NCBI GenBank assembly: GCA_964019135.1
Contig: OZ025249.1
Span: 3,038,001-3,102,000 of the forward strand
Length of the DNA: 64,000 bases
Origin: Arenicola marina
Taxonomy: Eukaryota > Annelida > Polychaeta > Arenicolidae
Direction: 5' to 3'
Position 1 is the first letter of the stretch. Every line of letters begins with the position of its first letter. Made by a program: the position numbers and the translations under genes. The notes under the pieces are model-generated. The model had not been told where the DNA came from, ran no database searches, and saw only the letters and a program-made list of their open reading frames with translations. Shown here in pieces: positions 24,834 to 60,783 of the stretch.

Positions 24834-24983
24834 TCAAGGGGGCGACTGGTTTTGTTTCAGCCATTCCACCAGTTTAGCCTCGTTCCGGCTCAGCCAATCA
24901 ACGTTCATCTCGATGCTGTCGAGAGTCTGCGCCACGGAGCGCACCGTACGCCCTTCCAGGTTCTTCGCAAAGAAGTCGCTGAC
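24834..24983 (-). CDS. Aminopeptidase exon 19: C-terminus and stop
   Basis: This exon encodes residues 930-978 and the TGA stop, immediately followed by [23 protein letters not shown] and [16 protein letters not shown] match the terminal F...xxxL/ExxxxNxxWLxxxxxxxxxWL pattern of the family. The acceptor is CTGTGTAG|GTCAGC. Confidence 0.95.
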   Translation of the reverse strand, partial: VSDFFAKNLEGRTVRSVAQTLDSIEMNVDWLSRNEAKLVEWLKQNQSPP

Positions 24984-27900
24984 CTACACAGGGAGAAGGT
25001 CAAGACAGTGGTATCCGTTACTACGGAATGAAAGGATGTCATCAAGTTCAGACTTTGTTACAGAAATTATATACATTTAATTAGCAGTTCATTTAAATAG
25101 TGCATAGATTTATGTATGCACACGTGCACAGGCTAAAGCAGTTTTGGGCAAAGAATTATGCTTCACGGAGGATTTGAAAACACCCCATATTCCAACCAAC
25201 TTAGTCAACCAAAACAATCACGCAATTCAAGATGGCGGCTGGCTTCGTGGCCTTGACCTTTACCTCGTCGTAGTCGAACTGGCTTGAGAAGCGCGAGGTG
25301 GGATCGATGATGAGGTGACGGAGCTGGAAGCCGAGGTCCTTGTACCTGAAACACACCATGGACGGCTGGAGCACACCTGGCTGGGGACACTTTACCCTCT
25401 GACAGTCAATACACAGGGCTGGGGACCCTTTACCCTGTGACAGTCAATACACCTGGCCGGGGACCCTTTACCCTGTGACAGTCAATACACCTGGCCGGGG
25501 ACACTTTACCCTGTAACAGTCAATACACAGGGCTGGGGACACTTTACCCTGTGACAGTCAATACACCTGGCTGGGGACACTTTACCCTGTGACAGTCAAT
25601 ACACAGGGCTGGGGACGCTTTACCCTGTGACAGTCAGTACACAGGGCTGGGGACACTTTACCCTGTGACAGTCAATACACCTGGCTGGGGACACTTTACC
25701 TTGCGACAGTCGATACACCTGGCTGGGGACACTTTACCCTGTGACAGTCAATACACCTGGCTGGGGACACTTTACCCTGTGACAGTCAATACACAGGGCT
25801 AGGGACACTTTACCCTGTGACAGTCCATACACAGGGCTGGGGACGCTTTACCCTGTGACAGTCAATACACAGGGCTGGGGACACTTTACCCTGCGACAGT
25901 CAATACGCAGGGCTGGGGACACTTTACCCTGTGACAGTCAAATACACCTGGCCGGGGACACTTTACCCTGTGACAGTCAATAAACCTGGCCGGGGACACT
26001 TTACCCTGTGACAGTCAATACACAGGGCTGGGGACACTTTACCCTGTGACAGTCAATACACAGGGCTGGGGACACTTTACCCTGTGACAGTCAATACACA
26101 GGGCTGGGGACACTTTACCCTGTGACAGTCAATACACCTGGCCGGGGACACTTTACCCTGTGACAGTCAATACACAGGGCTGGGGACGCTTTACCCTGTG
26201 ACAGTCAATACACAGGGCTGGGGACACTTTACCCTGTGACAGTCAATACACCTGGCTGGGGACACTTTACCCTGCGACAGTCGATACACCTGGCCGGGGA
26301 CACTTTACCCTGTGACAGTCAATACACAGGGCTGGGGACACTTTACCCTGTGACAGTAATTACACAGGGCTGGGGACACTTTACCCTGCGACAGTCAATA
26401 CGCAGGGCTGGGGACACTTTACCCTGTGACAGTCAATACACCTGGCTGGGGACACTTTACCCTGTGACAGTCAATACACAGGGCTGGGGACACTTTACCC
26501 TGTGACAGTCAATACACCTGGCTGGGGACACTTTACCCTGCGACGGTCGATACACCTGGCTGGGTACACTTTACCCTGTGACAGTCAATATACAGGGCTG
26601 GGGACACCTTACCCTGTGACAGTCAATACACAGGGCCGGGGACACTTTACCCTGTGACAGTCAATACACAGGGCTGGGGACACTTTACCCTGTGACAATC
26701 AATACACCTGGCTGGGGACACTTTACCCTGCGACAGTCAATACACAGGGCTGGGGACACTTTACCCTGTGACAGTCGATACACCTGGCCGGGGAAACTTT
26801 ACTCTGTGACAGTCAATACACAGGGCTGGGGACACTTTATCCTGTGACAGTCAATACACCTGGCTGGGGACACTTTACCCTGGGACAGTCAATACACAGG
26901 GCTGAGGACGCTTTACCCTGTGACAGTCAATACAAAGGGCTGGGGACACTTTACCCTGTGACAGTCAATACACCTGGCTGGGTACACTTTACCCTGTGAC
27001 AGTCAATATACAGGGCTGGGGACACCTTACCCTGTGACAGTCAATACACAGGGCTGGGGACGCTTTACCCTGTGACAGTCAATACACAGGGCTGGGGACA
27101 CTTTACCCTGTGACAGTCAATACACCTGGCTGGGGACACTTTACCCTGTGACAGTCAATATACAGGGCTGTGGACACCTTACCCTGTGACAGTCAATACA
27201 CAGGGCTGGGGACACTTTGCCTTGTGACAGTCAATACACCTGGCCGGGGACACTTTGCCCTGTGACAGTCAATACACAGGGCTGGGGACGCTTTACCCTG
27301 TGACAGTCAATACACAGGGCTGGGGACACTTTACCCTGCGACAGTCAATACACCTGGCCGGGGACACTTTACCCTGTGACAGACAATACACCAGGCTGGG
27401 AACACTTTACCCTGTGACAGTCAATATACAGGGCTGGGGACACCTTACCCTGTGACAGACAATACACAGGGTTAGGGACACTTTGCCTTGTGACAGTCAA
27501 TACACCTGGCCGGGGACACTTTACCCTGTGACAGTCAATACACAGGGCTGGGGACACTTTACCCTGTGACAGTCAATACAAAGGGCTGGGGACACTTTAC
27601 CCTGTGAAAGTCAATACACAGTCAACGGACCTACCTGGCGTAGAGGACGCCCCTGAACCACGTGACCTATCTGCCGTAGAGGACGCCCCTGACCCACGTG
27701 ACCTATCTGCCGTAGAGGACGCCAGACCCACGTGACCTACCTGCCGTAGAGAACGCCCCTGACCCAAGTGACCTCCCGGTCGTAGAGGACGCCCCTGACC
27801 CACGTGACCTACCAGCAATAAAGGACGCCTCTGACCCACGTGACCTACCTGCCATAGAAGACGCCCCTGACCCACGTGACCTACCTGTCGTAGAGGACGC

Positions 27901-30900
27901 CCCTGACCTACCTGTCGTAGAGGACGCCCCTGACCTACCTGCCGTAGAGGACGCCCCTGAACCACGTGACCTACCTGTCGTAGAGGATGCCCCAGTTACG
28001 CTTGACGAAGCGCCAAGTTTGCACACGGCCCGCTGGGTTCCTGGCCAGGTTGTTGAAGACACCGACGGCGTCTGCACTCCGGATTTTAGTGTCATCCAGC
28101 GCCAGATTCAGCAGTCTGCGTGGGGAAAAAGCGCAATTACCACGTCTGTTACCCCAGGGTTCATGGCCAGAGCGGGGTGGGTGGCGGTAGGATGCGGACA
28201 CACGGCAGACTGCTCGTACACATGGCGTGGGCCAAGTACCAGCAACTGGTCAGGGCTACGCGGGTGACCCCCCCTTGTCAGACATGTCATCTGTTGATCC
28301 TTTGAGTGAATAATAACTTCATGTAACGCAGCCGGCATATGTGACAAAACCCCGGAAAGGTGTCCCGTTATAAGGGACCAGGCCACGGTTCATGGATCTC
28401 CACCCAGACCGTTATAAGGGACCAGGCCACGGTTCATGGATCTCCACCCAGACCGGTTTAAGGGACCAGACCACGGTTCATGGATCTCCACCCAGACCGG
28501 TTTAAGGGACCAGGCCACGGTTGATAGGGTCTCCACCCAGACCGTTATAAGGGACCAGGCCACGGTTCATGGGGTCTCCATCCAGACTGTTATAAGGGAC
28601 CAAGCCACGATTCATGGATCTCCACCCAGACCGTTATAAGGGACCAGGCCACGGTTCATGGATCTCCACCCAGACCGGTTTAAGGGACCAGGCCACGGTT
28701 GATGGGGTCTCCACCCAGACCGTTATAAGGGACCAGGCCACGGTTCATGGGGTCTCCATCCAGACTGTTATAAGGGACCAAGCCACGGTTCATGGGGTCT
28801 CCACCCAGACCGGTTTAAGGGACCAGGCCACGGTTGATGGGGTCTCCACCCAGACCGTTATAAGGGACCAGGCCACGGTTCATGGGGTCTTTATCCAGAC
28901 TGTTATAAGGGACCAAGCCACGGTTCATGGGGTCTCCACCCAGACCGTTATAAGGGACCAGGCCACGGTTCATGGGGTCTCCACCCTGACCGTTATAAGA
29001 GAACCAGGCCACGGTTCATGGGGTCTCCACCAAGACCGTTATAAGGGACCAGGCCACGGTTCATAGGGTCTCCACCCAGACCGTTATAAGGGACCAGGCC
29101 ACGGTTCATGGGGTCTCCACCCTGACCGTTATAAGGGACCAGGCCACGGTTCATGGGGTCTCCACCCAGACCGTTATAAGGGACTAGGCCACGGTTCATG
29201 GGATCTCCACCAAGACCGTTATATGGGACCAGGCCCCGGTTCATGGGGTCTCCACCCTGACCGTTATAAGGGACCAGGCAACGGTTCATGGGGTCTCCAC
29301 CCAGACCGTTATAAGGGACCAGGCCACGGTTCATGGGGTCTCCACCCAGACCGTTATAAGGGACCAGGCCACGGTTCATGGGGTCTCCACCCTGACCGTT
29401 ATAGGGGACCAGGCTACGGTTCATGGGGTCTCCACCCTGACCGTTATAAGGGACCACGCCACGGTTCATGGGGTCTCCACCCAGACCGTTATAAGGCACC
29501 AGGCCACGGTTCATGGGGTCTCCACCCAGACCGTTATAAGGGACCAGGCCACGGTTCATGGGGTCTCCACCAAGACCGTTATATGGGACCAGGCTACGGT
29601 TCATGGGGTCTCAACCCTGACCGTTATAAGGGACCAGGCCACGGTTCATGGGGTCTCAACCCAGACCGTTATAAGGGACCAGGCCACGGTTCATGGGGTG
29701 TCCACCAAGACCGTTATAAGGGACCAGGCCACGGTTCATGGGGTCTCCACCCAGACCGTTATAAGGGACCAGGCCACGGTTCATGGAGTCTCCACCCTGA
29801 CCGTTATACGGGACCAGGCCACGGTTCATTGGGTCTCCACCCAGACCGTTATAAGGGACCAGGCCACGGTTCATGGGGTCTCCACCCTGACCGTTATAAG
29901 GGACCAGGCCACGGTTCATGGGGTCTCCACCAAGACCGTTATAAGGGACCAGGCCACGGTTCATAGGGTCTCCACCCAGACCGTTATAAGGGACCAGGCC
30001 ACGGTTCATGGGGTCTCCACCCTGACCGTTATAAGGGACCAGGCCACGGTTCATGGGGTCTCCACCCAGACCGTTATAAGGGACCAGGCCACGGTTCATG
30101 GGGTCTCCACCCTGACCGTTATAAGGGACCAGGCCACGGTTCATGGGGTCTCCACCCTGACCGTTATAAGGGACCAGGCCACGGTTCATGGGGTCTCCAC
30201 CAAGACCGTTATAAGGGACCAGGCTACGGTTCATAGGGTCTCCACCCAGACCGTTATAAGGGACCAGGCCACGGTTCATGGGGTCTCCACCCTGACCGTT
30301 ATAAGGGACCAGGCCGCGGTTCATGGGGTCTCCACCCAGACCGTTATAAGGGACTAGGCCACGGTTTATGGGGCCTCCACCAAGACCGTTATATGGGACC
30401 AGGCCCCGGTTCACGGGGTCTCCACCCTGACCGTTATAAGGAACCAGGCAACGGTTCATGGGGTCTCCACCCAGACCGTTATAAGGGACCAGGCCACGGT
30501 TCATGGGGTCTCCACCCAGACTGTTATAAGGGACCAGGCCACGGTTCATGGGGTCTCCACCCTGACCGTTATAAGGGACCAGGCTACGGTTCATGGGGTC
30601 TCCACCCTGACCGTTATAAGGGACCACGCCACGGTTCATGGGGTCTCCACCCAGACCGTTATAAGGGACCAGGCCACGGTTCATGGGGTCTCCACCCAGA
30701 CCGTTATAAGGGACCAGGCCACGGTTCATGGGGTCTCCACCAAGACCGTTATATGGGACCAGGCTACGGTTCATGGGGTCTCCACCCTGACCGTTATAAG
30801 GGACCACGCCACGGTTCATGGGGTCTCCACCCGGACCGTTATAAGGGACCAGGCAACGGTTCATGGGGTCTCCACCCGGACCGTTATAAGGGACCAGGCC

Positions 30901-33900
30901 ACGGTTCATGGGGTCTCCACCCTGACCGTTATAAGGGACCAGGCCACGGTTCATGGGGTCTCCACCCAGACCGTTATAAGGGACCAGGCCACGGTTCATG
31001 GGGTCTCCACCCTGACCGTTATAAGGGACCAGGCCACGGTTCATGGGGTCTCCACCAAGACCGTTATAAGGGACCAGGCCACGGTTCATAGGGTCTCCAC
31101 CCAGACCGTTATAAGGGACCAGGCCACGGTTCATGGGGTCTCCACCAAGACCGTTATATGGGACCAGGCTACGGTTCATGGGGTCTCCACCCTGACCGTT
31201 ATAAGGGACCACGCCACGGTTCATGGGGTCTCCACCCGGACCGTTATAAGGGACCAGGCCACGGTTCATGGGGTCTCCACCCGGACCGTTATAAGGGACC
31301 AGGCCACGGTTCATGGGGTCTCCACCCTGACCGTTATAAGGGACCAGGCCACGGTTCATGGGGTCTCCACCCAGACCGTTATAAGGGACCAGGCCACGGT
31401 TCATGGGGTCTCCACCCTGACCGTTATAAGGGACCAGGCCACGGTTCATGGGGTCTCCACCAAGACCGTTATAAGGGACCAGGCCACGGTTCATAGGGTC
31501 TCCACCCAGACCGTTATAAGAGACCAGGCCACGGTTCATGGGGTCTCCACCCTGACCGTTATAAGGGACCAGGCCACGGTTCATGGGGTCTCCACCCAGA
31601 CCGTTATAAGGGACTAGGCCACGGTTCATGGGGTCTCCACCAAGACCGTTATATGGGACCAGGCCCCGGTTCATGGGGTCTCCACCCTGACCGTTATAAG
31701 GGACCAGGCAACGGTTCATGGGGTCTCCACCCAGACCGTTATAAGGGACCAGGCCACGGTTCATGGGGTCTCCACCCAGACCGTTATAAGGGACCAGGCC
31801 ACGGTTCATGGGGTCTCCACCCTGACCGTTATAAGGGACCAGGCTACGGTTCATGGGGTCTCCACCCTGACCGTTATAAGGGACCACGCCACGGTTCATG
31901 GGGTCTCCACCCAGACCGTTATAAGGGACCAGGCCACGGTTCATGGGGTCTCCACCCAGACCGTTATAAGGGACCAGGCCACGGTTCATGGGGTCTCCAC
32001 CAAGACCGTTATATGGGACCAGGCTACGGTTCATGGGGTCTCAACCCAGATCGTTATAAGGGACCAGGCCACGGTTCATGGGGTCTCAACCCAGACCGTT
32101 ATAAGGGACCAGGCCACGGTTCATGGGGTCTCCACCAAGACCGTTATAAGGGACCACGCCACGGTTCATCGGGTCTCCACCCAGACCGTTATAAGGGACC
32201 AGGCCACGGTTCATGGGGTCTCCACCCTGACCGTTATAAGGGACCAGGCCACGGTTCATGGGGTCTCCACCCAGACCGTTATAAGGGACCAGGCCACGGT
32301 TCATGGGGTTTCCACCCTGACCGTTATAAGGGACCAGGCCACGGTTCATGGGGTCTCCAGCAAGACCGTTATAAGGGACCAGGCCACGGTTCATAGGGTC
32401 TCCACCCAGACCGTTATAAGGGACCAGGCCACGGTTCATGGGGTCTCCACCCTGACCGTTATAAGGGACCAGGCCACGGTTCATGGGGTCTCCACCCTGA
32501 CCGTTATAAGGGACCAGGCCACGGTTCATGGCGTCTCCACCCTGACCGTTATAAGGGACCAGGCCACGGTTCATGGGGTCTCCACCAAGACCGTTATAAG
32601 GGACCAGGCTACTGTTCATAGGGTCTCCACCCAGACCGTTATAAGGGACCAGGCCACGGTTCATGGGGTCTCCACCCTGACCGTTATAAGGGACCCAGCC
32701 ACGGTTCATGGGGTCTCCACCCAGACCGTTATAAGGGACTAGGCCACGGTTTATGGGGTCTCCACCAAGACCGTTATATGGGACCAGGCCCCGGTTCATG
32801 GGGTCTCCACCCTGACCGTTATAAGGGACCAGGCCACGGTTCATGGGGTCTCCACCCAGACCGTTATAAGGGACCAGGCCACGGTTCATGGGGTCTCCAC
32901 CCAGACCGTTATAAGGGACCAGGCCACGGTTCATGGGGTCTCCACCAAGACCGTTATATGGGACCAGGCTACGGTTCATGGGGTCTCCACCCTGACCGTT
33001 ATAAGGGACCACGCCACGGTTCATGGGGTCTCCACCCGGACCGTTATAAGGGACCAGGCCACGGTTCATGGGGTTTCCACCCGGACCGTTATAAGGGACC
33101 AGGAAACGGTTCATGGGGTCTCCACCCTGACCGTTATATGGGACCAGGCCACGGTTCATAGGGTCTCCACCCTGACCGTTATAAGGGACCAGGCCACGGT
33201 TCATGGGGTCTCCACCCTGACCGTTATAAGGGACCAGGCCACGGTTCATGGGGTCTCCACCAAGACCGTTATAAGGGACCAGGCCACGGTTCATAGGGTC
33301 TCCACCCAGACCGTTATAAGGGACCAGGCCACGGTTCATGGGGTCTCCACCCTGACCGTTATAAGGGACCAGGCCACGGTTCATGGGGTCTCCACCCAGA
33401 CCGTTATAAGGGACTAGGCCACGGTTCATGGGGTCTCCACCAAGACCGTTATATGGGACCAGGCCCCGGTTCATGGGGTCTCCACCCTGACAGTTATAGG
33501 GGACCAGGCCACGGTTCATGGGGTCTCCACCCAGACCGTTATAAGGGACCAGGCCACGGTTCATGGGGTCTCCACCCAGACCGTTATAAGGGACCAGGCC
33601 ACGGTTCATGGGGTCTCCACCAAGACCGTTTTATGGGACCAGGCTACGGTTCATGGGGTCTCCACCCAGACCGTTATAAGGGACCAGGCCACGGTTCATG
33701 GGGCCTCAACCCAGACCGCTATAAGGGACCAGGCCACGGTTCATGGGGTCTCCACCAAGACCGTTATAAGGGACCAGGCCACGGTTCATAGGGTCTCAAC
33801 CCAGACCGTTATAAGGGACCAGGCCACGGTTCATGGGGTCTCCACCCTGACCGTTATAAGGGACCAGGCCACGGTTCATGGGGTCTCCACCCAGACCGTT

Positions 33901-51900: not shown

Positions 51901-54900
51901 TATGAACTCCACATATCTGGCGAACCCCTCGTTCAGCCACAGGTCGTTCCACCATGTCATGGTCACCAGGTTCCCGAACCACTGCAACAACAAGTCCCGA
52001 TACATGAAATTATTCAAATTGACAGAATATATGTTTAAAAAATATAATATCGTCACACCAGTAGATTTCGGTTTAGTTTGTCTATGCGCGCTAACTGGTG
52101 CGCGGTCTGATGTGCGCCACCAAACGAGATATCTAATCAGGGCGCAAACAGGCGAGCAAGAAGCTATAATGGCGATCCAGACGACCAGAGCGCCACCTGG
52201 TGGGCGATATTTTAATGGCGATCCAGACGACCAGGGCGCCACCTGGCGGACGTGGTTTGCTACATGGTGCGCCACCCGGCGAGCTATAAGTCAACGCCGA
52301 GCCAGACGACAAGGGTGCCACCTGGCGGCGGGACGCGGTGTTACCTGGTGCGCCACTTGGCGAGCAATAAGCCAGACGACAAGGGTGCCACCTGGCGAGC
52401 AATAAGCAAGACGACAAGGGTGCCACCTGGCGGGACGCGGTGTGTTACCTGATGCGCCAGTTCGTGTGAGATGACGACGGCGGCCCACTGCAGGTCGCTA
52501 GGCGATGAGGTGACCGGGTCGACGAGCAGCGCCCTCATGCGGTAGGTGATGAGACCCCAGTTCTCCATGGCGCCCGCCTGGAAGTCTGGGATGGCGATGT
52601 GATCTACAACAGCGTACGATGACGTCACACACCAGCCATGGCACGATGACGTGACACAACAGGCATGGTACGATGACGTCACACAACAGCCATGACACGA
52701 TGACGTCACACAACAGCCATGGGACGATGACGTAAAACAACAGCCATGGGACGATGACGTAAAACAACAGCCATGGCACGATGACATCACAAACAGGCAT
52801 GGCACACTGACGGCACACAACAGCCATGGTACGATGACGTCACGCAACAGCCATGGCACGATGACGTCACACAGCAGCCATGGCACGATGACGTCACACA
52901 ACAGCCATGGCACGATGACGTCACACAACAGCCATGACACGATGACGTCACACAACAGCCATGGCACGATGACGTCACACAGCAGCCATGGCACGATGAC
53001 GTCACACAACAGCCATGGCACGATGACGTCACACAACAGCCATGACACGATGACGTCACACAACAGCCATGACACGATGACGTCACACAGCAGCCATGGC
53101 ACGATGACGTCACACAAGTCATGGCACGATGACGTCACACAAGTCATGGCACGATGACGTCACACAGCAGAATCAAGTTGGGGGCGATGGAAGGTCACGT
53201 GACAGTAGCTCGTACCTGACTTGGCGAGTGGATATTCGATGCCGAAGTATTGTCCGAAGAAGTCGATGACGCTGGTAGCGACGCCTACCGCGAATTCTCC
53301 ATGGCTGATCTGTTCTCTGGGCGCGTACACCGACACCTGGCGGCCGAGACACGCATCGTTTCAACATCGCCAAAACATGACATCGCTAGTTACAAACCCT
53401 TTCCACCAAACGGTTTGTTCTACAGTCAATGGCTTGTAAACTCTGAACATCAGGAAGTAATAAATGCTTGTGTATAGAAGCAGATGATGACCATATTGTC
53501 CCTGCCGTGCTGGCAATCACTTCACACTATGGGATCACCATGAAGTGAAGGCAGAAACAATAATACTTTAATAAATACCTTCATTACACAAGTTTCGACA
53601 CGACATACTTATACATAAGTTCGACACGACATACTTATACATAAGTTCGACACGACATACTTATACATAAGTTCGACACGACATACTTATACATAAGTTC
53701 GACACGACATACTTATACATAAGTTCGACACGACATACTTATACATAAGTTCGACACGACATACTTATACATAAGTTCGACACGACATACTTATACATAA
53801 GTTCGACACGACATACTTATACATAAGTTCGACACGACATACTTATACATAAGTTCGACACGACATACTTATACATAAGTTCGACACGATATACTTATAG
53901 AGCACTCACGCTGCCTGTCCGACCACCACCTGACAGACTACTTACATCCACGCCACCTTGTGTCTTGTCATGACGACTCTCATAGTCACACACCACCATG
54001 GCAACCAGATAGGTGCTCATGGGAACCGTCTCGGCAAAGTGATCGACGACAAAGTCTGGGTCCTCAGAGAACACTTCCTGCGAGACGTTGGGCGTGTTGA
54101 AGAGGGCCAGGTGAGTCTTGGGGCGGACCATGGACAGCTTAAAGGTGGCCTTCAGGGCCGGCTCGTCCAGACAGGGGAAGGCGGCGCGGGCGTCAGTCGG
54201 CTCGAAGTGGGTCGTCGCCAGCCACCTGTAGACGGGAGGGAGGAGGGGGGGGGGGGGTTAGAGAGAGTACTGCCACGGCGTCAGCTGAATCATTGGGCAG
54301 AGATTATAGAACGATAGAACCACAGTGTTACCCGTTTGTTCCTGATCGCTGGCCATCAAAACACTCAACCAGAGATGAAGAGGATCTGCTCAATTGAATC
54401 AGTCAGGACAACTATACGGACTATACTGAACAGTATAATCACCCTAAAGTATATACCCACCTCTGTTCCCGGTCACCCCAAGGTACACACCCACCTCTGT
54501 TCCCGGTCACCCCAAGGTACACACCCACCTCTCTTCCCGGTCACCCCAAGGTACACACCCACCTCTCTTCCCGGTCACCCCAAGGTACACACCCACCTCT
54601 CTTCCCGGTCACCCCAAGGTACACACCCACCTCTGTTCCCGGTCACCCCAAGGTACACACCCACCTCTCTTCCCGGTCACCCCAAGGTACACACCCACCT
54701 CTCTTCCCGGTCACCCCAAGGTACACACCCACCTCTCTTCCCGGTCACCCCAAGGTACACACCCACCTCTCTTCCCCGTGACCCCAAGGTACACACCCAC
54801 CTCTGTTCCCGGTCACCCCAAGGTACACACCCACCTCTCTTCCCGGTCACCCCAAGGTACACACCCACCTCTCTTCCCGGTCACCCCAAGGTACACACCC

Positions 54901-57900
54901 ACCTCTGTTCCCGGTCACCCCAAGGTACACACCCACCTCTGTTCCCGGTCACCCCAAGGTACACACCCACCTCTCTTCCCGGTCACCCCAAGGTACACAC
55001 CCACCTCTGTTCCCTGTGACCCCAAGGTACACACCCACCTCTCTTCCCGGTCACCCCAAGGTACACACCCACCTCTATTCCCTGTGACCCCAAGGTACAC
55101 ACCCACCTCTGTTCCCCGTAACCCCAAGGTACACACCCACCTCTGTTCCCCGTGACCCCAAGGTACACACCCACCTCTGTTCCCCGTGACCCCAAGGTAC
55201 ACACCCACCTCTGTTCCCGGTCACCCCAAGGTACACACCCACCTCTCTTCCCCGTGACCCCAAGGTAGACACCCACCTCTGTTCCCTGTGACCCCAAGGT
55301 ACACACCCACCTCTCTTCCCTGTCACCCCAAGGTACACACCCACCTCTCGTCCCCGTGACCCCAAGGTACACACCCACCTCTCTTCCCTGTGACCCCAAG
55401 GTAGACACCCACCTCTCTTCCCTGTGACCCCAAGGTAGACACCCACCTCTGTTCCCTGTGCCCCCAAGGTACACACCCACCTCTGTTCCCCATGACCCCA
55501 AAGTACACACCCACCACTGTTCCCTGTGACCCCAAGGTAGACACCCACCTCTGTTCCCCATGACCCCAAGGTACACACCCACCTCTATTCCCTGTGACCC
55601 CAAGGTACACACCCACCTCTGTTCCCCGTAACCCCAAGGTACACACCCACCTCTGTTCCCCGTGACCCCAAGATAGACACCCACCTCTGTTCCCCGTGAC
55701 CCCAAGGTACACACCCACCTCTGTTCCCGGTCACCCCAAGGTACACACCCACCTCTCTTCCCGGTCACCCCAAGGTACACACCCACCTCTGTTCCCCGTG
55801 ACCCCAAGGTACACACGCACCTCTGATCCCTGTGACCCCAAGGTACACACCCACCACTGTTCCCTGTGACCCCAAGGTACACACCCACCTCTGTTCCCCA
55901 TGACCCCAAGGTACACACCCACCTCTGTTCCCCGTGACCCCAAGGTACACACCCACCTCTTATCCCTGTGACCCCAAAGTAGATACCCACCTCTGTTCCC
56001 TGTGACACCAAGGTACACACCCACCTCTGTTCCCTGTGACCCCAAGGTAGACACCCACCTCTGTTCCCTGTGACCCCAAGGTACACACCCACCTCTGTTC
56101 CCTGTGACCCCAAGGTACACACCCACCTTTGATCCCTGTGACCCCAAGGTACACACCCACCTCTGTTCCCTGTGACCCCAAGGTACACACCCACCTTTGA
56201 TCCCTGTGACCCCAAGGTACACACCCACCTCTGTTCCCCGTGACCCCAAGGTACACACCCACCTCTGTTCCCCGTAACCCCAAGGTACACACCCACCTCT
56301 GATCCCTGTCACCCCAAGGTACACACCCACCTCTGTTCCCCATGACCCCAAGGTACACACCCACCTCTGTTCCCTGTGACCCCAAGGTACACACCCACCT
56401 CTGTTCCCTGTGACCCCAAGGTACACACCCACCTCTGTTCCCCGTGACCCCAAGGTACACACCCAACTCTGTTCCCTGTGACCCCAAGGTACACACCCAC
56501 CTCTGTTCCCCGTGACCCCAAGGTACACACCCACCTCTGTTCCCCGTGACCCCAAGGTACACACCCACCTCTGTTCCCCGTGACCCCAAGGTACACACCC
56601 ACCTCTGTTCCCCATGACCCCAAAGTACACACCCACCTCTGTTCCCCATGACCCAAAGGTAGACACCCACCTCTGTTCCCGGTGACCCCAAGGTACACAC
56701 CCACCTCTGTTCCCTGTGACCCCAAGGTACACACCCACCTCTGTTCCCCATGACCCCAAGGTACACACCCACCTCTGTTCCCCATGACCCCAAGGTACAC
56801 ACCCACCTCTCTTCCCGGTGACCCCAATGTACACACCCACCTCTGTTCCCTGTGACCCAAAGGTACACACCCACCTCTGTTCTCTGTGACCCCAAGGTAC
56901 ACACCCACCTTTGTTCCCGGTGACCCCAAGGTACACACCCACCTCTGTTCCCTGTGACCCCAAAGTACACACCCACCTCTGTTCCCTGTGACCCAAGGTA
57001 CACACCCACCTCTGTTCCCCATGACCCCAAGGTACACACCCACCTCTGATCCCTGTGATCCCAAGGTACACACCCACCTCTGTTCCCCATGACCCCAAGG
57101 TACACACCCACCTCTGTTCCCCATGACCCCAAGGTACACACCCACCTCTGTTCCCTGTGACCCCAAGGTACACACCCACCTCTGTTCCCCGTGACCCCAA
57201 GGTACACACCCACCTTTGATCCCTGTGACCCCAAGGTACACACCCAACTCTGTTCCCTGTGACCCCAAGGTACACACCCACCTCTGTTCCCGGTGACCCC
57301 AAGGTACACACCCACCTCTGTTCCCCGTGACCCCAAGGTACACACCCACCTCTGTTCCCCATGACCCCAAGGTACACACCCACCTCTGTTCCCCGTGACC
57401 CCAAGGTACACACCCACCTTTGTTCCCTGTGATCCCAAGGTACACATCCACCTCTGATCCCTGTGATCCCAAGGTACACACCCACCTCTGTTTCTCATGA
57501 CCCCAAGGTACACACCCACCTTTGATCCCTATGACCCCAAGGTACACACGCACCTCTGATCCCTGTGACCCCAAGGTACACACGCACCTCTGATCCCTGT
57601 GACCCCAAGGTAGACACCCACCTTTGATCCCTATGACCCCAAGGTACACACGCACCTCTGTTCCCTGTGACCCCAAGGTACACACCCACCTCTGTTCCCC
57701 GTGACCCCAAGGTACACACCCACCTCTGTTCCCCGTGACCCCAAGGTACACACCCACCTCTGTTCCCCATGACCCCAAGGTACACACCCACCTCTGTTCC
57801 CCGTGACCCCAAGGTACACACCCACCTCTGTTTCTCATGACCCCAAGGTACACACCCACCTTTGATCCCTATGACCCCAAGGTACACACGCACCTCTGAT

Positions 57901-60783
57901 CCCTGTGACCCCAAGGTACACACGCACCTCTGATCCCTGTGACCCCAAGGTAGACACCCACCTCTGTTCCCTGTGACCCCAAGGTACACACCCACCTCTG
58001 TTCCCCGTGACCCCAAGGTACACACCCACCTCTGTTCCCCGTGACCCCAAGGTACACACCCACCTCTGTTCCCCATGACCCCAAGGTACACACCCACCTC
58101 TGTTCCCCGTGACCCCAAGGTACACACCCACCTCTGTTTCTCATGACCCCAAGGTACACACCCACCTTTGATCCCTATGACCCCAAGGTACACACGCACC
58201 TCTGATCCCTGTGACCCCAAGGTACACACGCACCTCTGATCCCTGTGACCCCAAGGTAGACACCCACCTTTGATCCCTGTGACCCCAAGGTAGACACCCA
58301 CCTCTGTTCCCCGGCGCTTGTGTTGTATGAGCTGCGGTAGAAGCCAGCCAAGTTGTCGGTCAGCTCCCCAGAGAAGTGCAGCTGCAGCACGTACTTGCTG
58401 TCCTTCTGCAGAGTCTCCCCCAGCTTAAGCCAGACCTGCTCATGCCCCTCATACTCCAGGCTCTTCACGATGTTCACGTCGCTCTGGGCGCCGGCGCCAG
58501 TGTCCTCCTTGAACAGGGCATGGCTTTGTATGACAAGCTGCTTGCTGTGGAACACAATGAAGTCCTGGGCCTCCTCACACACCAGGGTCATGTTGATGAT
58601 GCCAGTGAATTGGAAGGTGCTGAGATCAGGGTACATAAAGAGGGAGTAAGATTCCGGGACCATGTGGGTCGGCAACAAGATGTCCTTCCAGGGGAAGGGT
58701 TCCCCGTTCTTGGCGGTGGCCTCGGTGGGGTGGGTGGCCTGTGAGCCTGGGATGGGTGTTGGTGCACAGCCCCCACTGGGGGCAGGTCGTGCCAGGGCCG
58801 CTATCAGAGCTATGGCAAATACTACTATAACCACCCCACTCACAATGAGGGCCGCCTTGGTGGGTGAGCAGATCAGCTGTTTACATTTCTGTATCGTGCT
58901 CGGCTCATATACAGACTTTTTCCCAACATGTGGGCCTGCAATAAAACATAAACAAAACCCAGATTAAAGTAACAGAAAGCATGTTTGGGTGATTAGAAAA
59001 CTGAGAGTGCAGGTGCAAACAGGATACCCAAGAGTGTTCGGTGATGATGAGAGAATTCAGAAGTGTTTATGTATTGTGCCAGAGCGGGACAAAGACAGTG
59101 TCACAGTAACATGGAATAATAATACCTTCCAGGGATTAGTAAATTTGGTTTAGATATTTATGATGGAATAATAAACTTTGAAATAAAATATAAAATAGAA
59201 TTATCTTTTAGATTTAACAGAACTAATTAGGTCCTAGTTTCATAAGTTAATACTCTCCACTCTGAGATGGCTCCAGTCACTAATTAATAGGTTCCTGACC
59301 AAAATCTGATCTAGACTTTCGTCTGCCATAAACGAACCTTTTCGCATCAAAATTTAGCAATGAACCATATATTTATATTCAGCAACCTATTCTTTGTTAA
59401 TTTATTACCAATTTGGGCACTGTTGTTACTTGAGATTTCTGAGGTTTTCTGGCTGCTTTGATTGAGGTTTAGGTGCACCAGATGAAATGACTCTGTATAT
59501 GCATTTTTTAAGTATGGATTCTACATCACATCAAGTGATGAGTCATGTTTGAGTAATATTTCTTTTATATAAATGATCAGACTTAATAGTCTGTCATCTC
59601 TGTATAATTTTTGAGAAGCATCATGTAGAAATTGTTTCAGTATTTCAATGTTAAAACCTAATTTGTTTGAGAATATCTCAGCAAGAAATTTGCTTACAAG
59701 CAACCGATTTTGTGACTAAATAAAAACTTGTCATTTGTATAAAATTGGTGACGTATTGGCACAAATTTATATCTCACTGAACTAAAGAAGTTAACAGAAT
59801 TAGTTTGGGGTATCGATTTTATTTGATTAATGTGAGTATTTGTGCTGAAGATGAAAATTTATGTGTGAACAGCAATTGCACACGATGAGTTCAGACGTTA
59901 CAGTCATAAGAATAAGTGTCAAGACTGTATCGTCTAAACATTCAGGCTAAAGGCGAAGTTACCAGACCTGTCTTTAACTTATCATAGGGTGCTGTTAGAG
60001 CCAGGCAGCATTTGCTGTCTTTGTGCTGTTGCAGCGCATAATGGCGCGGCTGGCGCTGATCGAATAAATGTGCCCAGAAAAAGCCCTGACATTGCAAGTT
60101 AGGACAATAAATCATAGTATTTTCCTTCCCGCCAGGTCAGTAAATTGCATAAGAATTCTGGAAAGATCCATATTTTGTCGGCTAGTTAAAAACTGTGCGC
60201 CCTATACGCAAAGATATGCGCTGCAACATCGCAAAGACAGCAAATGCTGCCTGGCTCTAACAGCACACCCTGTGATGCGTTGGAGACAGGCCTGGTAAAG
60301 GGCGAAGAAGCCTGCACCGAGAACTGCTTGGTTGTTATTGTTTCAAGGGAAGGTTGGACACAGTCTGGCAACAACACCTCTACACCCAAGACTTGTATTT
60401 TCCCTCGTCAGTAAATCGATGAATCCTCCAGTCCTGCGGTATGTTTTGCACTGATTATTAATGTAAAAGCGTTGGTTTAAAGCCACGACCAGCTGATAGG
60501 CTTCAAGCCTGATTATACAGCTGTATCAGATGTATGTATGTATGTATGTATGGTTGCCCTCTCCAGTGGGGGCCAAAATGCTGAGGACGAAAAAGCCTTC
60601 GGGCGATGAGTCTAGAAACTGTTAGACAGTTAGTGACAGAGTCCGTCACATAGCCTAGCCGCTTTCGACATTTGTCAGTGTTTGTCAGTGTCGACTGTCG
60701 TTTGAACGAGTTGGTAGGCCCAAATAGATCTTACCTGGTAAGAACGAAACATCTTCTACTTCGTTCATATCGTTGTCAGACAT
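24834..60783 (-). CDS. M1 zinc aminopeptidase, type II membrane protein (19 coding exons)
   Basis: This gene encodes a 978-residue ectoenzyme predicted to remove N-terminal residues from peptides outside the cell or in a vesicle lumen. I built it by joining 19 exons whose GT-AG junctions and phases all agree; the lengths sum to 2937 nt including the TGA. Visible features are a short acidic cytosolic tail (1-42), one membrane helix (about 43-65), a Pro/Thr-rich stalk (66-97), an N-terminal beta domain (about 98-320), the thermolysin-like domain with GAMEN at 372-376, HELAH at 408-412, the third zinc ligand Glu431 and catalytic Tyr494, then a beta-sandwich and a helical C-terminal domain. The length matches animal ANPEP/ENPEP (about 950-970). 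Sequences such as [12 protein letters not shown] recall ENPEP, but the residue before GAMEN is Ala, as in ANPEP and LNPEP, not the ENPEP Thr. I therefore give no symbol. Several N-glycosylation sequons (NMT, NTS, NVS, NKT, NHT, NTT) fit a secretory-pathway ectodomain. The Glu usual after ENWG-x-x-x-Y-R is Met here. Confidence 0.95.
25264..25345 (-). CDS. Aminopeptidase exon 18
   Basis: This exon encodes residues 902-929, [20 protein letters not shown] and then SQFDYDE, matching the conserved LxxLIxxxTxxFxTxxxxxE helix pair. Splice sites are TTTCAG|GTACAA and GACGAG|GTAAAG. Confidence 0.94.
25365..27618. repeat. 38-bp minisatellite, intron 17, about 59 copies
   Basis: The unit is read as ACAGTCAATACACCTGGCTG followed by GGGACACTTTACCCTGTG. 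Two main variants alternate irregularly (ACACCTGG and ACACAGGG). The array starts about 20 bp upstream of the exon 18 acceptor and runs up to the 36-bp array that abuts exon 17, so intron 17 is almost entirely tandem repeat. No intact splice-junction copy is evident in this unit. Confidence 0.95.
27619..27974 (-). repeat. 36-bp minisatellite carrying copies of the exon 17 donor, intron 17
   Basis: On the sense strand, ten units each repeat the exon 17 end and 5' splice site. The true junction is GGGGCATCCTCTACGACAG then GTAGGT, and copies read GGGGCGTCCTCTACGACAG or GGCAG then GTAGGT. Two units are shortened to about 24 bp. In the exon's reading frame a TAG lies across every junction, so use of a downstream copy would add a premature stop. 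Many units also contain CACGTG. Confidence 0.92.
27975..28115 (-). CDS. Aminopeptidase exon 17
   Basis: This exon encodes residues 855-902, [20 protein letters not shown] followed by [10 protein letters not shown] and [13 protein letters not shown]. It matches the Q/DxxxxxxxxxxNxxGxxxxWxFxxxNWxxL region near the C-terminus of M1 enzymes. Splice sites are CACGCAG|ACTGC and CGACAG|GTAGGT; the donor region is repeated ten times in the next intron. Confidence 0.95.
28370..37090. repeat. 45-bp minisatellite, intron 16, about 194 copies
   Basis: The unit is read as CCCAGACCGTTATAAGGGAC, CAGGCCACGGTTCATGGGGT, CTCCA. It is the largest array in the window. Variant units (CCCTGACC, CAAGACC, CCCGGACC, ATATGGG, GGCAACGG) recur in blocks, and a marker variant reading ATATGGGACCAGGCCCC appears at spacings that are exact multiples of 45 bp. 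Because 45 is divisible by 3 and the unit lacks stops, both strands show open frames hundreds of codons long. These are by-products: the exon 16 frame stops within a few codons of the donor. Confidence 0.97.
37111..37278 (-). CDS. Aminopeptidase exon 16
   Basis: This exon encodes residues 799-855. [20 protein letters not shown] matches the NPNLRxxVYxxGIxxGGxxEW signature of the helical domain, and [18 protein letters not shown] matches the following LxxALAxxxxxxLLxRYL stretch. Splice sites are GTTTCAG|CCTCAA and AACAG|GTTTGT. In the true frame a TAA follows the donor within a few codons, so the 45-bp array downstream is not part of this exon. Confidence 0.95.
37707..37814 (-). CDS. Aminopeptidase exon 15
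   Basis: This exon encodes residues 763-799, [20 protein letters not shown] and onward to WMNSVNT. It is amphipathic helical sequence matching the family pattern of a Cys/Gly-rich helix followed by FxxWM. Splice sites are GTGCAG|GCTGCG and ACCAC|GTGAGT. Confidence 0.94.
37918..38936. repeat. 55-bp minisatellite, intron 14, about 18.5 copies
   Basis: The unit is read as ACTGAGACGTGGGGCAGAGC, GTACAGCGGGTGGGCGCCCA, GGGCCCATACACTAT. Copies are nearly identical (occasional GTGAGGC or CCGGTG variants), which suggests recent expansion or homogenisation. No exon or splice junction sequence is evident in the unit. Confidence 0.95.
38993..40080. repeat. Degenerate GTCTGTGACT-type array, intron 14
   Basis: Short units of about 11-17 bp built on GGTCTGTGACT, with ATG or GG inserts, run with many interruptions over 1.1 kb and resume at about 40225-40460. 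They are simple and degenerate compared with neighbouring arrays. Confidence 0.85.
40072..40235 (-). pseudogene. Partial duplicate of the exon 14 donor region inside intron 14
   Basis: Positions 40072-40235 duplicate 40455-40655: both have GTTTGTGATTGAGGTTTGAC, a T-rich tract, a CAGAA-GCTGTTGTA stretch and then exon 14 sequence. In the copy the sense strand reads AGCCGCAGCTGACCCA then GTGACT, so the exon's GCCGCAGCTG is joined to its terminal TGACCCA with about 28 nt lost. It lacks the acceptor and first part of the exon, so it is a non-functional fragment with a donor-like site. Confidence 0.7.
40610..40677 (-). CDS. Aminopeptidase exon 14
   Basis: This exon encodes residues 741-763 ([10 protein letters not shown], ending in TDHMT plus CA of Gln763). 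It fits the family pattern of a helix after the PW motif. The acceptor, TTCCATTAG|CGGTAC preceded by C and T runs, is the most downstream of about 41 near-identical acceptors. The donor is ACCCA|GTGAGT. A broken partial copy of this exon lies about 400 bp further into intron 14. Confidence 0.94.
40680..43055 (-). repeat. About 58-bp minisatellite of exon 14 acceptor copies, intron 13
   Basis: On the sense strand each unit contains a C-rich and T-rich tract, TTCCATTAG and then CGGTACATGCTGAACCTG, which are the first 18 bases of exon 14, followed by ATCTGATAACTCTTACAC. I count about 40 copies besides the true site. Unit length varies (about 56-64 bp) only through the C-run. Use of any upstream copy in the exon frame would encode RYMLNLI and then TGA. 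Confidence 0.95.
43280..43427 (-). CDS. Aminopeptidase exon 13: helical C-terminal domain
   Basis: This exon encodes residues 691-740 ([20 protein letters not shown], then [10 protein letters not shown]). The FxPW motif is standard in the ERAP1_C-like helical domain. Splice sites are CGTCAG|GTCGGG and TTTTCT|GTGAGC; the donor's T at -1 is weak, but it is the only choice that keeps phase with exon 14. Confidence 0.93.
43530..45825. repeat. 37-bp minisatellite, intron 12, about 62 copies
   Basis: The unit is read as CTGGTCTGGTCTACAGACAC then TGAGCTCTCACTATGGA. Variants are TTATTATGG for TCACTATGG, GGCCTA for GGTCTA and CACAGAG for CACTGAG. Most units contain GAGCTC. The short 70-107-residue frames here are repeat by-products. 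I see no exon-junction copy in the unit. Confidence 0.95.
45845..45975. repeat. Short tandem repeat of about 30 bp next to the exon 12 donor, intron 12
   Basis: There are about four degenerate units of the form GTGACCTTGAGCGACGTGGA plus TACATTAGT. It separates the 37-bp array from the exon 12 donor. Confidence 0.75.
46000..46055 (-). CDS. Aminopeptidase exon 12 (56 nt)
   Basis: This small exon encodes [18 protein letters not shown] (673-690) and two bases of Arg691. [12 protein letters not shown] matches the DRAxLIDDAFxLA motif at the start of the helical domain. Splice sites are ACTCCAG|GTGTTG and GACCAG|GTTAGT. The exon is embedded between kilobase-scale arrays. Confidence 0.94.
46146..47900. 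repeat. 15-bp minisatellite, intron 11, about 117 copies
   Basis: The unit is CAGCCCTAGCGCAGA, with variants CATAACGCAGA, CATAGCGCAGA and CATAGCGCTGA. Blocks of variants recur at about 250 bp (for example CAGTCATAACGCAG near 46441 and 46692), which shows higher-order amplification. The 15-bp unit is open in several frames, giving Ala/Val/Cys-rich spurious proteins. Confidence 0.95.
47901..48935 (-). repeat. 33-bp minisatellite adjoining the exon 11 donor, intron 11, about 31 copies
   Basis: On the sense strand the unit is GTGAGCACTGACAGCTGGCG plus ACAGTCCAGCACT. The true exon 11 donor reads CATACG then GTGAGCGACAGTCCGGCAAG and runs directly into the first GTGAGCACT. Each unit therefore keeps the GTGAGC donor core and GACAGTCC sequence, but no clear exon bases. 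The array directly abuts the 15-bp array. Confidence 0.93.
48944..49071 (-). CDS. Aminopeptidase exon 11: FYRVHYD segment
   Basis: This exon encodes residues 630-672, including [17 protein letters not shown], the conserved NPxxxGFYRVNYD junction between the beta-sandwich and the helical C-terminal domain of M1 enzymes. Splice sites are TCGCAG|TGACC and CATACG|GTGAGC. Confidence 0.95.
49250..49375. repeat. Degenerate 54-bp duplication with CRE-like sites, intron 10
   Basis: There are two to three imperfect copies containing TGACGTCA, CAAGACTCACTAGT and CTGATACATTA. No splice-junction sequence is visible. Confidence 0.6.
49452..49537 (-). CDS. Aminopeptidase exon 10: beta-sandwich domain
   Basis: This exon encodes residues 601-630, [18 protein letters not shown] and onward, matching the YxWxVPxxxxT strand of domain III. 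The acceptor is TTTTATCAG|TTACC, which is reiterated upstream at 52-bp intervals; the donor is TCAG|GTAGGT. Phases (one base in, one base out) agree with the neighbouring exons. Confidence 0.93.
49538..49790 (-). repeat. 52-bp repeat of the exon 10 acceptor, intron 9
   Basis: On the sense strand about five units upstream of exon 10 each contain TTTT(A/G)TCAG then TTACC(T/A)GTGGGAG, GTGCCGCTGTCCTA and ATTACGGAG, which are the acceptor and first 38 or so bases of exon 10. TTTGTGTT joins successive copies. The 52-bp period is not a multiple of three, so use of an adjacent copy would shift the frame. Confidence 0.93.
49787..50451 (-). repeat. About 90-bp repeat of the exon 9 donor, intron 9
   Basis: Seven copies of a segment resembling the exon 9 end plus donor (sense TTCACGTCCGACTATGG then GTGAGTG; true exon TTCACCTCCGACTATGG) are joined by G-rich tracts. 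Five intervals are close to 90 bp. Together with the 52-bp acceptor repeats, these account for almost all of intron 9. Confidence 0.93.
50452..50630 (-). CDS. Aminopeptidase exon 9: start of beta-sandwich domain
   Basis: This exon encodes residues 542-601. It contains [16 protein letters not shown], diagnostic of the boundary between domains II and III in ENPEP/ANPEP-type enzymes, then QQRFLYNP. It ends ACTATGG|GTGAGTG. The C-tract acceptor abuts a G-run on the plus strand. The junction is copied seven times in the next intron. Confidence 0.96.
50888..51022 (-). CDS. Aminopeptidase exon 8
   Basis: This exon encodes residues 497-541, starting [14 protein letters not shown]. It is helical sequence following the catalytic tyrosine, and the segment through [20 protein letters not shown] is typical of the end of the thermolysin-like domain. 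Splice sites are CCGCTAG|GGGGCG and CAGCAG|GTGGGG, both phase 0. Introns 7 (173 bp) and 8 (257 bp) are the shortest apart from intron 18 and have no minisatellite. Confidence 0.96.
51196..51330 (-). CDS. Aminopeptidase exon 7: catalytic tyrosine
   Basis: This exon encodes residues 452-496 and ends IFDAISYEK. Tyr494 corresponds to the transition-state-stabilising tyrosine of M1 enzymes (the YxKG motif, whose Gly begins exon 8). Splice sites are GCGGCAG|TTCGAC and GAGAAG|GTAACG, both phase 0. Confidence 0.96.
51700..51867 (-). repeat. 40-bp repeat of the exon 6 donor, intron 6
   Basis: Donor-like sites lie exactly 40 bp apart at about 51707, 51747, 51787, 51827 and 51867 (the true one). Copies read GAGTGGAAAATG then GTATGT, with increasing divergence in two middle copies, against the exon's AAGTGGAAAATG then GTACGT. 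There are four extra copies. Confidence 0.85.
51868..51981 (-). CDS. Aminopeptidase exon 6: third zinc ligand
   Basis: This exon encodes residues 414-451, beginning [20 protein letters not shown]. Glu431 lies 18 residues after the second zinc histidine, which is exactly the M1 spacing. The intron between exons 5 and 6 splits the zinc site between HELAHQ and WFGN. Splice sites are TTGCAG|TGGTTC and AAAATG|GTACGT; the latter is repeated at 40-bp intervals downstream. Confidence 0.97.
52165..52448 (-). repeat. Degenerate repeat of the exon 5 donor, intron 5
   Basis: Sense-strand GTGGCGCACCAG then GTAACACCGCGTCC closely copies the exon 5 junction (CTGGCGCATCAG then GTAACACACCGCG). A second, more diverged copy reads GGCGCACCATGTAGCAAACC. 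Short CGCCAGGTGGCACCCTTG repeats fill the space between. Confidence 0.8.
52449..52603 (-). CDS. Aminopeptidase exon 5: GAMEN exopeptidase motif and HELAH zinc motif
   Basis: This exon encodes residues 362-413. It contains [13 protein letters not shown], the exopeptidase motif that binds the substrate amino terminus, and [10 protein letters not shown], with zinc ligands His408 and His412 and general base Glu409. Methionine follows TYR where animal family members usually have Glu. Splice sites are TTGTAG|ATCAC and CATCAG|GTAACA. The next intron repeats the donor junction. Confidence 0.97.
52612..53172. repeat. 27-bp minisatellite with a CRE in most units, intron 4
   Basis: There are about 20 units of ACGATGACGTCACACAACAG plus CCATGGC. 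About sixteen contain the palindrome TGACGTCA. On the sense strand GCTGTTGTGTGACGTCATCG resembles the exon 5 acceptor region GCTGTTGTAGATCACATCGC, but the AG is lost. Confidence 0.93.
53216..53336 (-). CDS. Aminopeptidase exon 4: start of catalytic domain
   Basis: This exon encodes residues 322-361 (begins [10 protein letters not shown], ends EYPLAKS) plus one base of Asp362. The segment corresponds to the YxxP...FFxxYFxIxYPLxKxD region that leads into the active-site domain of M1 enzymes. Splice sites are CCGCCAG|GTGTCG and TCAG|GTACGA. Confidence 0.96.
53591..53898. repeat. 26-bp minisatellite, intron 3, about 12 copies
   Basis: The unit is GTTCGACACGACATACTTAT plus ACATAA. Internal copies are identical; only the edge copies differ (GTTTCGAC, CGATATAC). 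This suggests a very recent expansion. The array ends about 50 bp from the exon 3 donor, without copying it. Confidence 0.95.
53946..54225 (-). CDS. Aminopeptidase exon 3: end of N-terminal domain
   Basis: This exon encodes residues 228-321. It contains the M1 landmark [20 protein letters not shown], a close match to the segment of animal aminopeptidases that helps shape the substrate pocket, followed by [12 protein letters not shown]. The acceptor is a long pyrimidine tract ending CTACAG|GTGG and the donor is GAT|GTAAGT. The first base completes Arg228 from exon 2 and the exon ends in phase 0. Confidence 0.96.
54449..58301 (-). repeat. 34-bp minisatellite of exon 2 donor copies, intron 2, about 113 copies
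   Basis: On the sense strand the unit is GTGGGTGTGTACCTTGGGGT plus CACGGGGAACAGAG. The last 11 bases, GGGGAACAGAG, equal the 3' end of exon 2, so each unit reproduces the junction CAGAG then GTGGGT. The array begins at the true donor without a spacer. All three sense frames stay open for hundreds of codons, so exon extension into the array would not soon meet a stop. Confidence 0.97.
58302..58935 (-). CDS. Aminopeptidase exon 2: membrane anchor, stalk, N-terminal domain
   Basis: This is the largest exon, 634 nt, encoding residues 17-228. It opens after a TTTTATTGCAG acceptor and carries basic and Cys residues before a hydrophobic helix (about 43-65, rich in V, I, A and L), a Pro/Thr stalk, and the first M1 beta-sheet domain starting near PWKDILLP and ending [13 protein letters not shown]. 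An ATG-like start inside the helix is really GTG, so translation must begin upstream. The exon ends CAGAG|GTGGGTG. That junction is reiterated about 113 times in the following intron. Confidence 0.95.
59943..60314. mobile_element. Foldback (inverted-repeat) element in intron 1
   Basis: Two inverted arms of about 98 bp (59943-60040 and 60215-60314) share, in opposite orientation, GTGCTGTTAGAGCCAGGCAG then CATTTGCTGTCTTTG, with weaker matching outwards. The 174-bp centre has no coding potential. The structure resembles a non-autonomous foldback or MITE-type transposon; I do not recognise the family or a clear target duplication. Confidence 0.55.
60530..60552. repeat. (TATG)n microsatellite in intron 1
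   Basis: About five tandem copies of TATG. Confidence 0.85.
60735..60783 (-). CDS. Aminopeptidase exon 1: start codon and cytosolic tail
   Basis: This exon encodes the acidic N-terminus [16 protein letters not shown] (1-16) and one base of Gly17, ending at a strong donor, CCAG|GTAAGA. The start is chosen because an in-frame TAA lies 21 nt upstream and the next exon's phase (two bases, GC) completes the Gly codon. Position -3 is G. Short cytosolic tails are normal for type II M1 peptidases. The main uncertainty is that no transcript confirms this junction across the 1.8 kb intron. Confidence 0.82.

What the first reader, a model, noticed from the sequence alone, without database searches (positions are those of the whole stretch)
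24834..60783. Intronic minisatellites built from the gene's own splice junctions
In at least six introns of this one gene the tandem unit includes an exon-intron boundary: donor copies in introns 2, 5, 6, 9 and 17, and acceptor copies in introns 9 and 13, with a possible partial case in intron 11. Arrays begin flush with the true junction, so each exon is flanked by arrays of decoy sites of nearly identical strength. This is too frequent for chance and points to a mechanism that starts slippage or unequal exchange at exon edges, with selection holding the exon itself. I recall junction-spanning minisatellites reported at an amphioxus gene, so the class may not be new, but several introns affected in one gene, at both junction types and with over 100 copies, would be striking.
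Basis: partly seen in the sequence, partly recalled or inferred. Interest (0 to 1): 0.92.

Follow-up and report, generated by a model that had tools for sequence, protein, structure and literature searches.

The report
Introns built from splice-junction repeats
In what is most likely a marine-worm (annelid) gene for a peptide-cutting enzyme, short stretches that include the exact edge between exon and intron have been copied head to tail up to about 114 times, filling introns with decoy splice sites, a pattern known from lancelet genes.

Summary
The minus strand carries an intact 19-exon M1 aminopeptidase gene (ERAP/LNPEP clade; 978 aa) that groups with the annelid Paralvinella. Seven of its 20 minisatellite arrays span a true exon-intron junction: donors of introns 2, 5, 6, 9, 17 and acceptors of introns 9, 13, each with 10-37 exonic nt. 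An eighth (intron 11) starts at the donor without exonic bases. About 171 decoys keep GT or AG. Intron 9 is 97% copies of its own two junctions. None of 612 junction-versus-other-intron comparisons gave a spanning copy. The class is known: "mirages", described in lancelet genes. New here are the annelid host, the scale, and a junction-spanning array in a second gene of the same genome (Rab3-like, 5 copies). The chance argument is weaker than claimed: 7 observed against 2.7 expected (P 0.009) when arrays are collapsed to founders, P 0.064 under the strictest null. Units sit evenly about the junction (KS p 0.51, n=7), so an exon-edge mechanism is not required. Best explanation: random tandem duplications in short introns of a minisatellite-rich genome, tolerated because the exon-proximal site is used. 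No RNA data were available.

The parts
24834..60783 (-). M1 aminopeptidase gene (ERAP/LNPEP clade), 19 coding exons, 978 aa
58302..58935 (-). exon 2, ends ...GAACAGAG|GTGGGT
54441..58311 (-). intron 2 donor array, 34-nt unit, 114 copies, 10 exonic nt
52219..52432 (-). intron 5 donor array, about 79-nt unit, 2 spanning copies with 14 exonic nt
51687..51893 (-). intron 6 donor array, 40-nt unit, 5.2 copies, 26 exonic nt
49942..50468 (-). intron 9 donor array, 89-nt unit (TRF 91), 5.9 copies, 17 exonic nt
49501..49778 (-). intron 9 acceptor array, 52-nt unit, 5.3 copies, 37 nt of exon 10
49538..50451 (-). intron 9: 888 of 914 nt match its own two junction units
47901..48939 (-). intron 11 array, 33-nt unit, 31.5 copies, begins 4 nt inside the donor; GTGAGC decoys, no exonic bases
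40657..43069 (-). intron 13 acceptor array, 56-nt unit, 41 phased copies, 18 nt of exon 14 per unit, C-rich tract, AG and a CTGAT branch-like motif at -36
27625..27993 (-). intron 17 donor array, 36-nt unit, 10.2 copies, 19 exonic nt; GT kept in 6 of 11
28365..37092 (-). intron 16 array, 45-nt unit, 194 copies, 18 nt from exon; no significant junction relation
52616..53170 (-). intron 4 array, 27-nt unit, ends 12 nt from acceptor; weak, uncounted resemblance (1 copy, no AG)

Best explanation
These are 'mirage' minisatellites. In a minisatellite-rich annelid genome, tandem duplications of tens of nucleotides arise by slippage or unequal exchange at positions random with respect to exon edges. 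Because the introns are short once arrays are taken out (mostly a few hundred nt), a sizeable share of duplications straddle a junction. One copy stays as the real exon edge, and the others fall inside the intron as decoys and expand. The gene still works because the exon-proximal site is the one chosen (exon definition). The decoys carry only 10-37 nt of exon, and within an intron donor copies lie before acceptor copies, so decoys cannot define a new cassette exon. Shown: structure, copy numbers, open reading frame, conserved protein length across junctions, local origin of units within the sample searched, and a junction-spanning array in a Rab3-like gene. Inferred: the slippage route, random placement, and exon-proximal site choice.
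For: Junction copies only in their own intron, 0 of 612 comparisons elsewhere. Exonic fraction of units spread evenly, KS p 0.51, n=7. Neighbouring copies in i2 are more alike (0.934) than in any of 2000 shuffled orders (max 0.922), the sign of local exchange or slippage. Arrays sum to 27,477 of 35,950 bp; the collapsed gene is 9,418 nt of which 2,937 exonic. Non-array sequence per intron is 36-1799 nt. Genome sample: 27% arrays in 26 stretches. Twelve homologs chosen from 120 listed show no length change across introns 5, 6, 9 and 13; at intron 2 one lacks the region, at intron 17 one has a 2-aa gap. Only 2 of 169 tested decoys would leave the frame open; 167 give an early stop. Rab3-like exon acceptor: 5 spanning copies, 3 with AG, 7 exonic nt. 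A Rab-type donor in L037 is followed at a 68-nt lag by a 23-nt copy of its exon end (22 identical) without the GT, which fits the remnant of a tandem duplication across the junction. Units are local: one 17-nt match for ten units in 299.6 kb outside the window.
Against: Seven arrays exceed the 2.66 expected for random founders (P 0.009), so random placement alone is not a perfect fit. The KS test has only seven points. Outside the window clear arrays at junctions are rare: 1 clear and 1 ambiguous of 18 junctions and none in 20 Ras-family stretches apart from the partial copy. Site choice has no RNA support here. The duplication route was not observed directly.
Confidence: 0.68

Rival explanations
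1. Exon edges are preferred birth places of tandem arrays in this lineage, for example through breaks or R-loops at exon borders, or because a fixed exon copy anchors one end of the array.
For: 7 of 20 arrays span a junction against 2.66 expected (P 0.009); one more starts 4 nt from a donor and two others end 12 and 18 nt from an exon.
Against: P is 0.064 when arrays slide within their own introns and 0.047 with a 1-nt threshold. The unit position is spread evenly over the junction. In the sample outside the window arrays span 1 clear and 1 ambiguous junction of 18 tested.
Confidence: 0.2
2. The decoy arrays are functional: they bind U1 or divert a share of transcripts to frames with early stops, lowering or tuning expression.
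For: Many decoys keep donor scores and dinucleotides (112 of 114 GT in i2, 41 of 41 AG in i13); 167 of 169 would give an early stop.
Against: GT retention in i2 is not exceptional (22 of the unit's 33 dinucleotides are kept less often, the rest as often or more); i17 has lost GT in 5 of 11. No conservation between species could be tested.
Confidence: 0.07
3. The gene model is wrong and the arrays are coding repeats or alternative exons.
For: The i2 array has long open frames.
Against: The 19-exon model gives one open frame matching ERAP1 over residues 86-973 (E 2.2e-191), and homologs have almost no length change at these junctions.
Confidence: 0.03
4. Assembly artefact.
For: Tandem arrays assemble poorly; a 200-N gap lies at 19459-19658 beside an array.
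Against: Copies differ from one another in an ordered way, and the pattern recurs in other places of a chromosome-scale assembly.
Confidence: 0.02

Closest known systems
'Mirage' minisatellites of lancelets (Adh3, globins BflGb6/BflGb9, troponin C, PGBD5)
   Same: Tandem units spanning an exon-intron boundary, at donor or acceptor, with splice signals kept in many copies (PMC3087553 and PMC3902484, passages read). The 2002 Adh paper that named them (PMC117041) is not held and was not read.
   Different: Host is most likely an annelid; seven arrays in one gene and up to 114 copies, where the passages give 2-7 copies for the globins and PGBD5 (copy numbers for Adh3 and troponin C not seen); one intron almost wholly made of its own two junctions.
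Intron gain by tandem genomic duplication (potato RdRp; human internal tandem repeats)
   Same: Tandem duplication that copies or creates splice signals (PMC4974935 search listing and start of abstract; PMC2812944 passages).
   Different: Those make new introns; here existing introns are enlarged and the encoded protein keeps its length at these junctions.
Intronic minisatellites of earthworm metallothionein genes
   Same: Annelid intronic minisatellites (PMC12783039 passages).
   Different: Monomers of 25-216 nt inside intron 1; the passages read do not describe junction-spanning units.

Membership tests
mirage minisatellite | tandem unit spans a true exon-intron boundary | tested here: met
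   seven arrays, 10-37 exonic nt each; boundaries are from homology and GT-AG, not from RNA
mirage minisatellite | minisatellite unit length (10-160 nt in the lancelet passages) | tested here: met
   units 34-91 nt
mirage minisatellite | both 5' and 3' boundaries can be affected | tested here: met
   five donors and two acceptors
mirage minisatellite | regular splicing not disturbed | not testable with these tools
   no RNA; only indirect support from homologous proteins
mirage minisatellite | length instability between alleles or tissues | not testable with these tools
   one assembly only
mobile introner or dispersed satellite | unit dispersed through the genome | tested here: not met
   one 17-nt match for ten units in 299.6 kb sampled outside the window, that is 0.03% of the 867-Mb assembly; genome-wide pattern searches did not complete
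intron gain by tandem duplication | new intron position absent from relatives | not tested
   no genomic sequence of relatives was available

The most novel reading that the evidence does not exclude
In this annelid, exon edges are preferred birth sites of minisatellites, so introns grow genome-wide out of copies of their own splice junctions (intron 9 being the end state), a process that arose independently of, or was retained alongside, that of lancelets.
Probability: 0.25. Interest if true: 0.86.

Novelty: new variant of a known kind. Interest (0 to 1): 0.7.

Why it matters
It takes a curiosity of lancelets into a distant phylum and to an extreme scale. The gene is a natural test of how the splicing machinery picks one site among dozens of near-identical ones, since site strength cannot be the answer, and of how introns grow. 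It also warns gene annotators: tools that score splice sites alone would struggle with such genes.

Tried and rejected
Amphioxus as host: rejected, Branchiostoma ERAP1 is 32nd of the 120 listed hits at 44% and falls outside the annelid clade. One result does not fit neatly: the annelid Owenia falls outside that clade, beside molluscs (84/78). Junction origin for the remaining arrays: each of 20 units was tested against its own two junctions (40 uncorrected tests). Beyond the counted arrays, p was under 0.05 for the intron 3 donor (0.023), the intron 4 acceptor (0.043) and the intron 6 donor array against the intron 6 acceptor (0.030); these are weak and not counted. Intron 16 gave 0.512 and 0.116. 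Selection keeping decoys: not supported. Coding genes in 1-24.5 kb and 60.8-64 kb: ORFs listed, none recognised by eye; not searched in a database. The intron 5 array could not be phased. The stomatin exon copy (82%, one copy) is not counted as an array; the Ifi-6-16 array is ambiguous because the unit also holds an ATG in frame. The Rab3-like exon B donor was listed but not tested, and the exon A donor was entered one base off the likely junction.

Full report
What the locus is. The window is bases 3,038,001-3,102,000 of contig C2 in an 867-Mb, 762-contig assembly. The minus strand from 60783 to 24834 carries a complete gene of 19 exons. Joining them at GT-AG borders gives one 978-aa frame. 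Of eight pieces scanned with Pfam, six matched: M1 peptidase N-terminal (2) and catalytic (2) domains above the curated cut-off, and the ERAP1-like C-terminal domain (2) below it. The best solved relative is ERAP1 (6q4r, E 2.2e-191, residues 86-973). The protein search listed the best 120 of 7976 hits; the closest named ones include Paralvinella palmiformis (52% over 69%) and Capitella (47%). In a tree of the protein with 27 chosen relatives it is sister to Paralvinella (100/99) inside a 7-row clade (100/100) with Capitella and four unnamed sequences; lancelet ERAP1 lies elsewhere, and so does the annelid Owenia, beside molluscs (84/78). The host is therefore most likely an annelid; no name was available.

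The observation. Twenty arrays sum to 27,477 of the gene's 35,950 bases. I aligned each of the 36 junctions (25 exonic and 35 intronic bases for donors; 35 intronic and 40 exonic for acceptors) to its own intron and to the other 17. Copies spanning the junction occur at the donors of introns 2, 5, 6, 9 and 17 and the acceptors of introns 9 and 13. There was one doubtful copy at the intron 4 acceptor, none at the other 28 junctions, and none in 612 comparisons with other introns. Parsing with a cyclic alignment anchors the arrays on the true junction: 10, 26, 17, 37, 21 and 19 exonic bases lie inside the arrays of i2, i6, i9 donor, i9 acceptor, i13 and i17; i5 has 14. Decoys with an intact dinucleotide number 111, 4, 5, 4, 40 and 5 in the same order, plus 2 in i5, 171 in all. 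Intron 11 differs: its 33-nt array starts 4 nt inside the donor, repeats GTGAGC 22 times, and contains no exonic bases.

Two details stand out. Intron 9 has almost nothing but copies of its own ends: 647 of 914 nt match the donor unit, 241 the acceptor unit, 26 neither. Upstream of exon 10 the acceptor array runs for 241 nt, so the branch point of the true acceptor probably lies in an exon-derived copy (inference). The intron 13 unit holds a branch-like CTGAT, a C-rich tract, AG and 18 nt of exon 14, so the array looks like about 40 complete 3' splice sites in a row (inference from sequence).

Strength and consequence. With a donor table recalled from memory, the median copy equals the true site in i2, i6, i9 and i17; within 1 unit or above are 109 of 114, 3 of 5, 6 of 6 and 5 of 9, the exon-bearing copy included. 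In i11 decoys are weaker (median 5.1 against 8.4). Acceptor decoys were not scored. Of 169 decoys tested, 2 would leave an open full-length frame and 167 would bring an early stop; none of the 22 in i11 would leave it open. Twelve homologs, chosen from the 120 listed, show no length change across introns 5, 6, 9 and 13; one lacks the region of intron 2 and one has a 2-aa gap at intron 17. The exon-proximal sites must therefore be used to make the conserved protein. Donor strength cannot separate them from many of the decoys, which points to exon definition (inference).

Is it more than chance? It depends on the null. On present lengths, random founders of the same unit sizes give 0.59 junction-spanning arrays with at least 10 exonic nt, and none of 6000 runs reached 7. 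If each array is first collapsed to one unit, so that introns are short, the mean is 2.66 and P is 0.009. The 10-nt threshold was set after seeing the data; thresholds of 1, 5 and 8 nt give P(>=7) of 0.047, 0.025 and 0.014. If present arrays are slid within their own introns, the mean is 4.14 and P is 0.064. There is an excess, but not one that needs a special mechanism. The exonic share of the unit (0.18 to 0.71) is compatible with uniform placement (KS p 0.51, seven points).

How arrays behave. In i2 adjacent copies are more alike than in any of 2000 shuffles. In i13 and the i9 donor array, copies near the exon resemble the exon copy more than distant ones (Spearman -0.58 and -0.97, the latter on five points); in i2 (-0.09) and the i9 acceptor array they do not; in i6 the trend is opposite on four points. 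GT in i2 is kept in 112 of 114, but that is ordinary among the unit's dinucleotides (22 of 33 are kept less often). There is thus no clear sign of selection for or against decoys.

Is it only this gene? I sampled other parts of the assembly, at places I chose without knowing their genes. In 26 ten-kb stretches at four places arrays make up 27% (median 14.5%) against 64% of the window. Coding exons were picked by codon usage. Pfam matched at least one exon each for the Ras, diphthamide synthesis, band 7, PR/SET and Ifi-6-16 families above its cut-offs; the synapsin match, one Ras-family exon and some other exons did not reach them, and names such as Rab3, DPH2, stomatin and PRDM are by eye. Of 18 junctions tested (one more listed, not tested), 15 had no spanning copy. 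The acceptor of a Rab3-like exon had 5 (3 with AG, 7 exonic nt), an Ifi-6-16 exon start had 18 (8 with AG, but it may be a start codon rather than an acceptor), and a stomatin-like acceptor had one diverged copy. Of 149 Ras-family matches I took 20 short stretches (480 nt each), going down the list and leaving out matches over 216 nt, matches with stops, and the Rab3-like exon already seen. One of the 20 showed an exon-derived copy: a Rab-type donor followed at a 68-nt lag by 23 nt of its exon end, without the GT. The pattern is thus not unique to this gene, and this gene looks like an extreme case in an array-rich place.

Against what is known. Repeats spanning exon-intron boundaries were named mirages in lancelet Adh3, then reported in globins, troponin C and PGBD5 (PMC3087553 and PMC3902484, passages read). 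The passages say they do not seem to disturb splicing and that clusters vary in length. Ten searches of the held library listed no title or abstract start that reports them in an annelid; lists were cut at 15 of 49 and 12 of 25, and only six papers were opened in part (PMC3087553, PMC3902484, PMC12783039, PMC2812944, PMC4039745 in passages; PMC117041 not held). Most subscription papers are outside that library, so absence from print is not shown.

Verdict. Observation confirmed; the class is known; annelid host, scale and self-built intron are new as far as these searches go. The most likely mechanism is random tandem duplication in short introns with exon-proximal splicing; a preference for exon edges remains possible and is directly testable with the assembly and RNA.

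Noticed in passing
L022:5199-7322 and L023:8630-8980 (G000 C3 15.00-15.02 Mb): A PR/SET domain followed by a C2H2 zinc-finger array (Pfam PRDM2_PR, SET, zf-C2H2), with a neighbouring ORF that looks KRAB/SSX-like by eye but has no Pfam hit: a possible PRDM9-type gene in an annelid. TRF covers 61% and 76% of the two stretches, partly the zinc fingers themselves.
   Followed up: partly
L011:231-1191: A 44-nt array running into the coding start of an Ifi-6-16 family exon; the unit contains both an AG and an in-frame ATG, so it may be a start-codon-spanning array.
   Followed up: partly
L025:2477-2575: One 82% copy of the acceptor and first 39 nt of a stomatin-like exon, about 200 nt upstream of the real exon, ending in a GA repeat.
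   Followed up: partly
window 5686-21529: Large arrays flank the gene on one side with no gene recognised, while 58312-64000 (most of exon 2 to upstream of the gene) has none in the TRF list.
   Followed up: no
window 19459-19658: A 200-N assembly gap directly abutting a 31-nt, 49-copy array.
   Followed up: no
window 28365-37092: A 194-copy, 45-nt array makes up 8.7 kb of the 9.0-kb intron 16, starting 18 nt after the donor; its origin is unexplained.
   Followed up: partly
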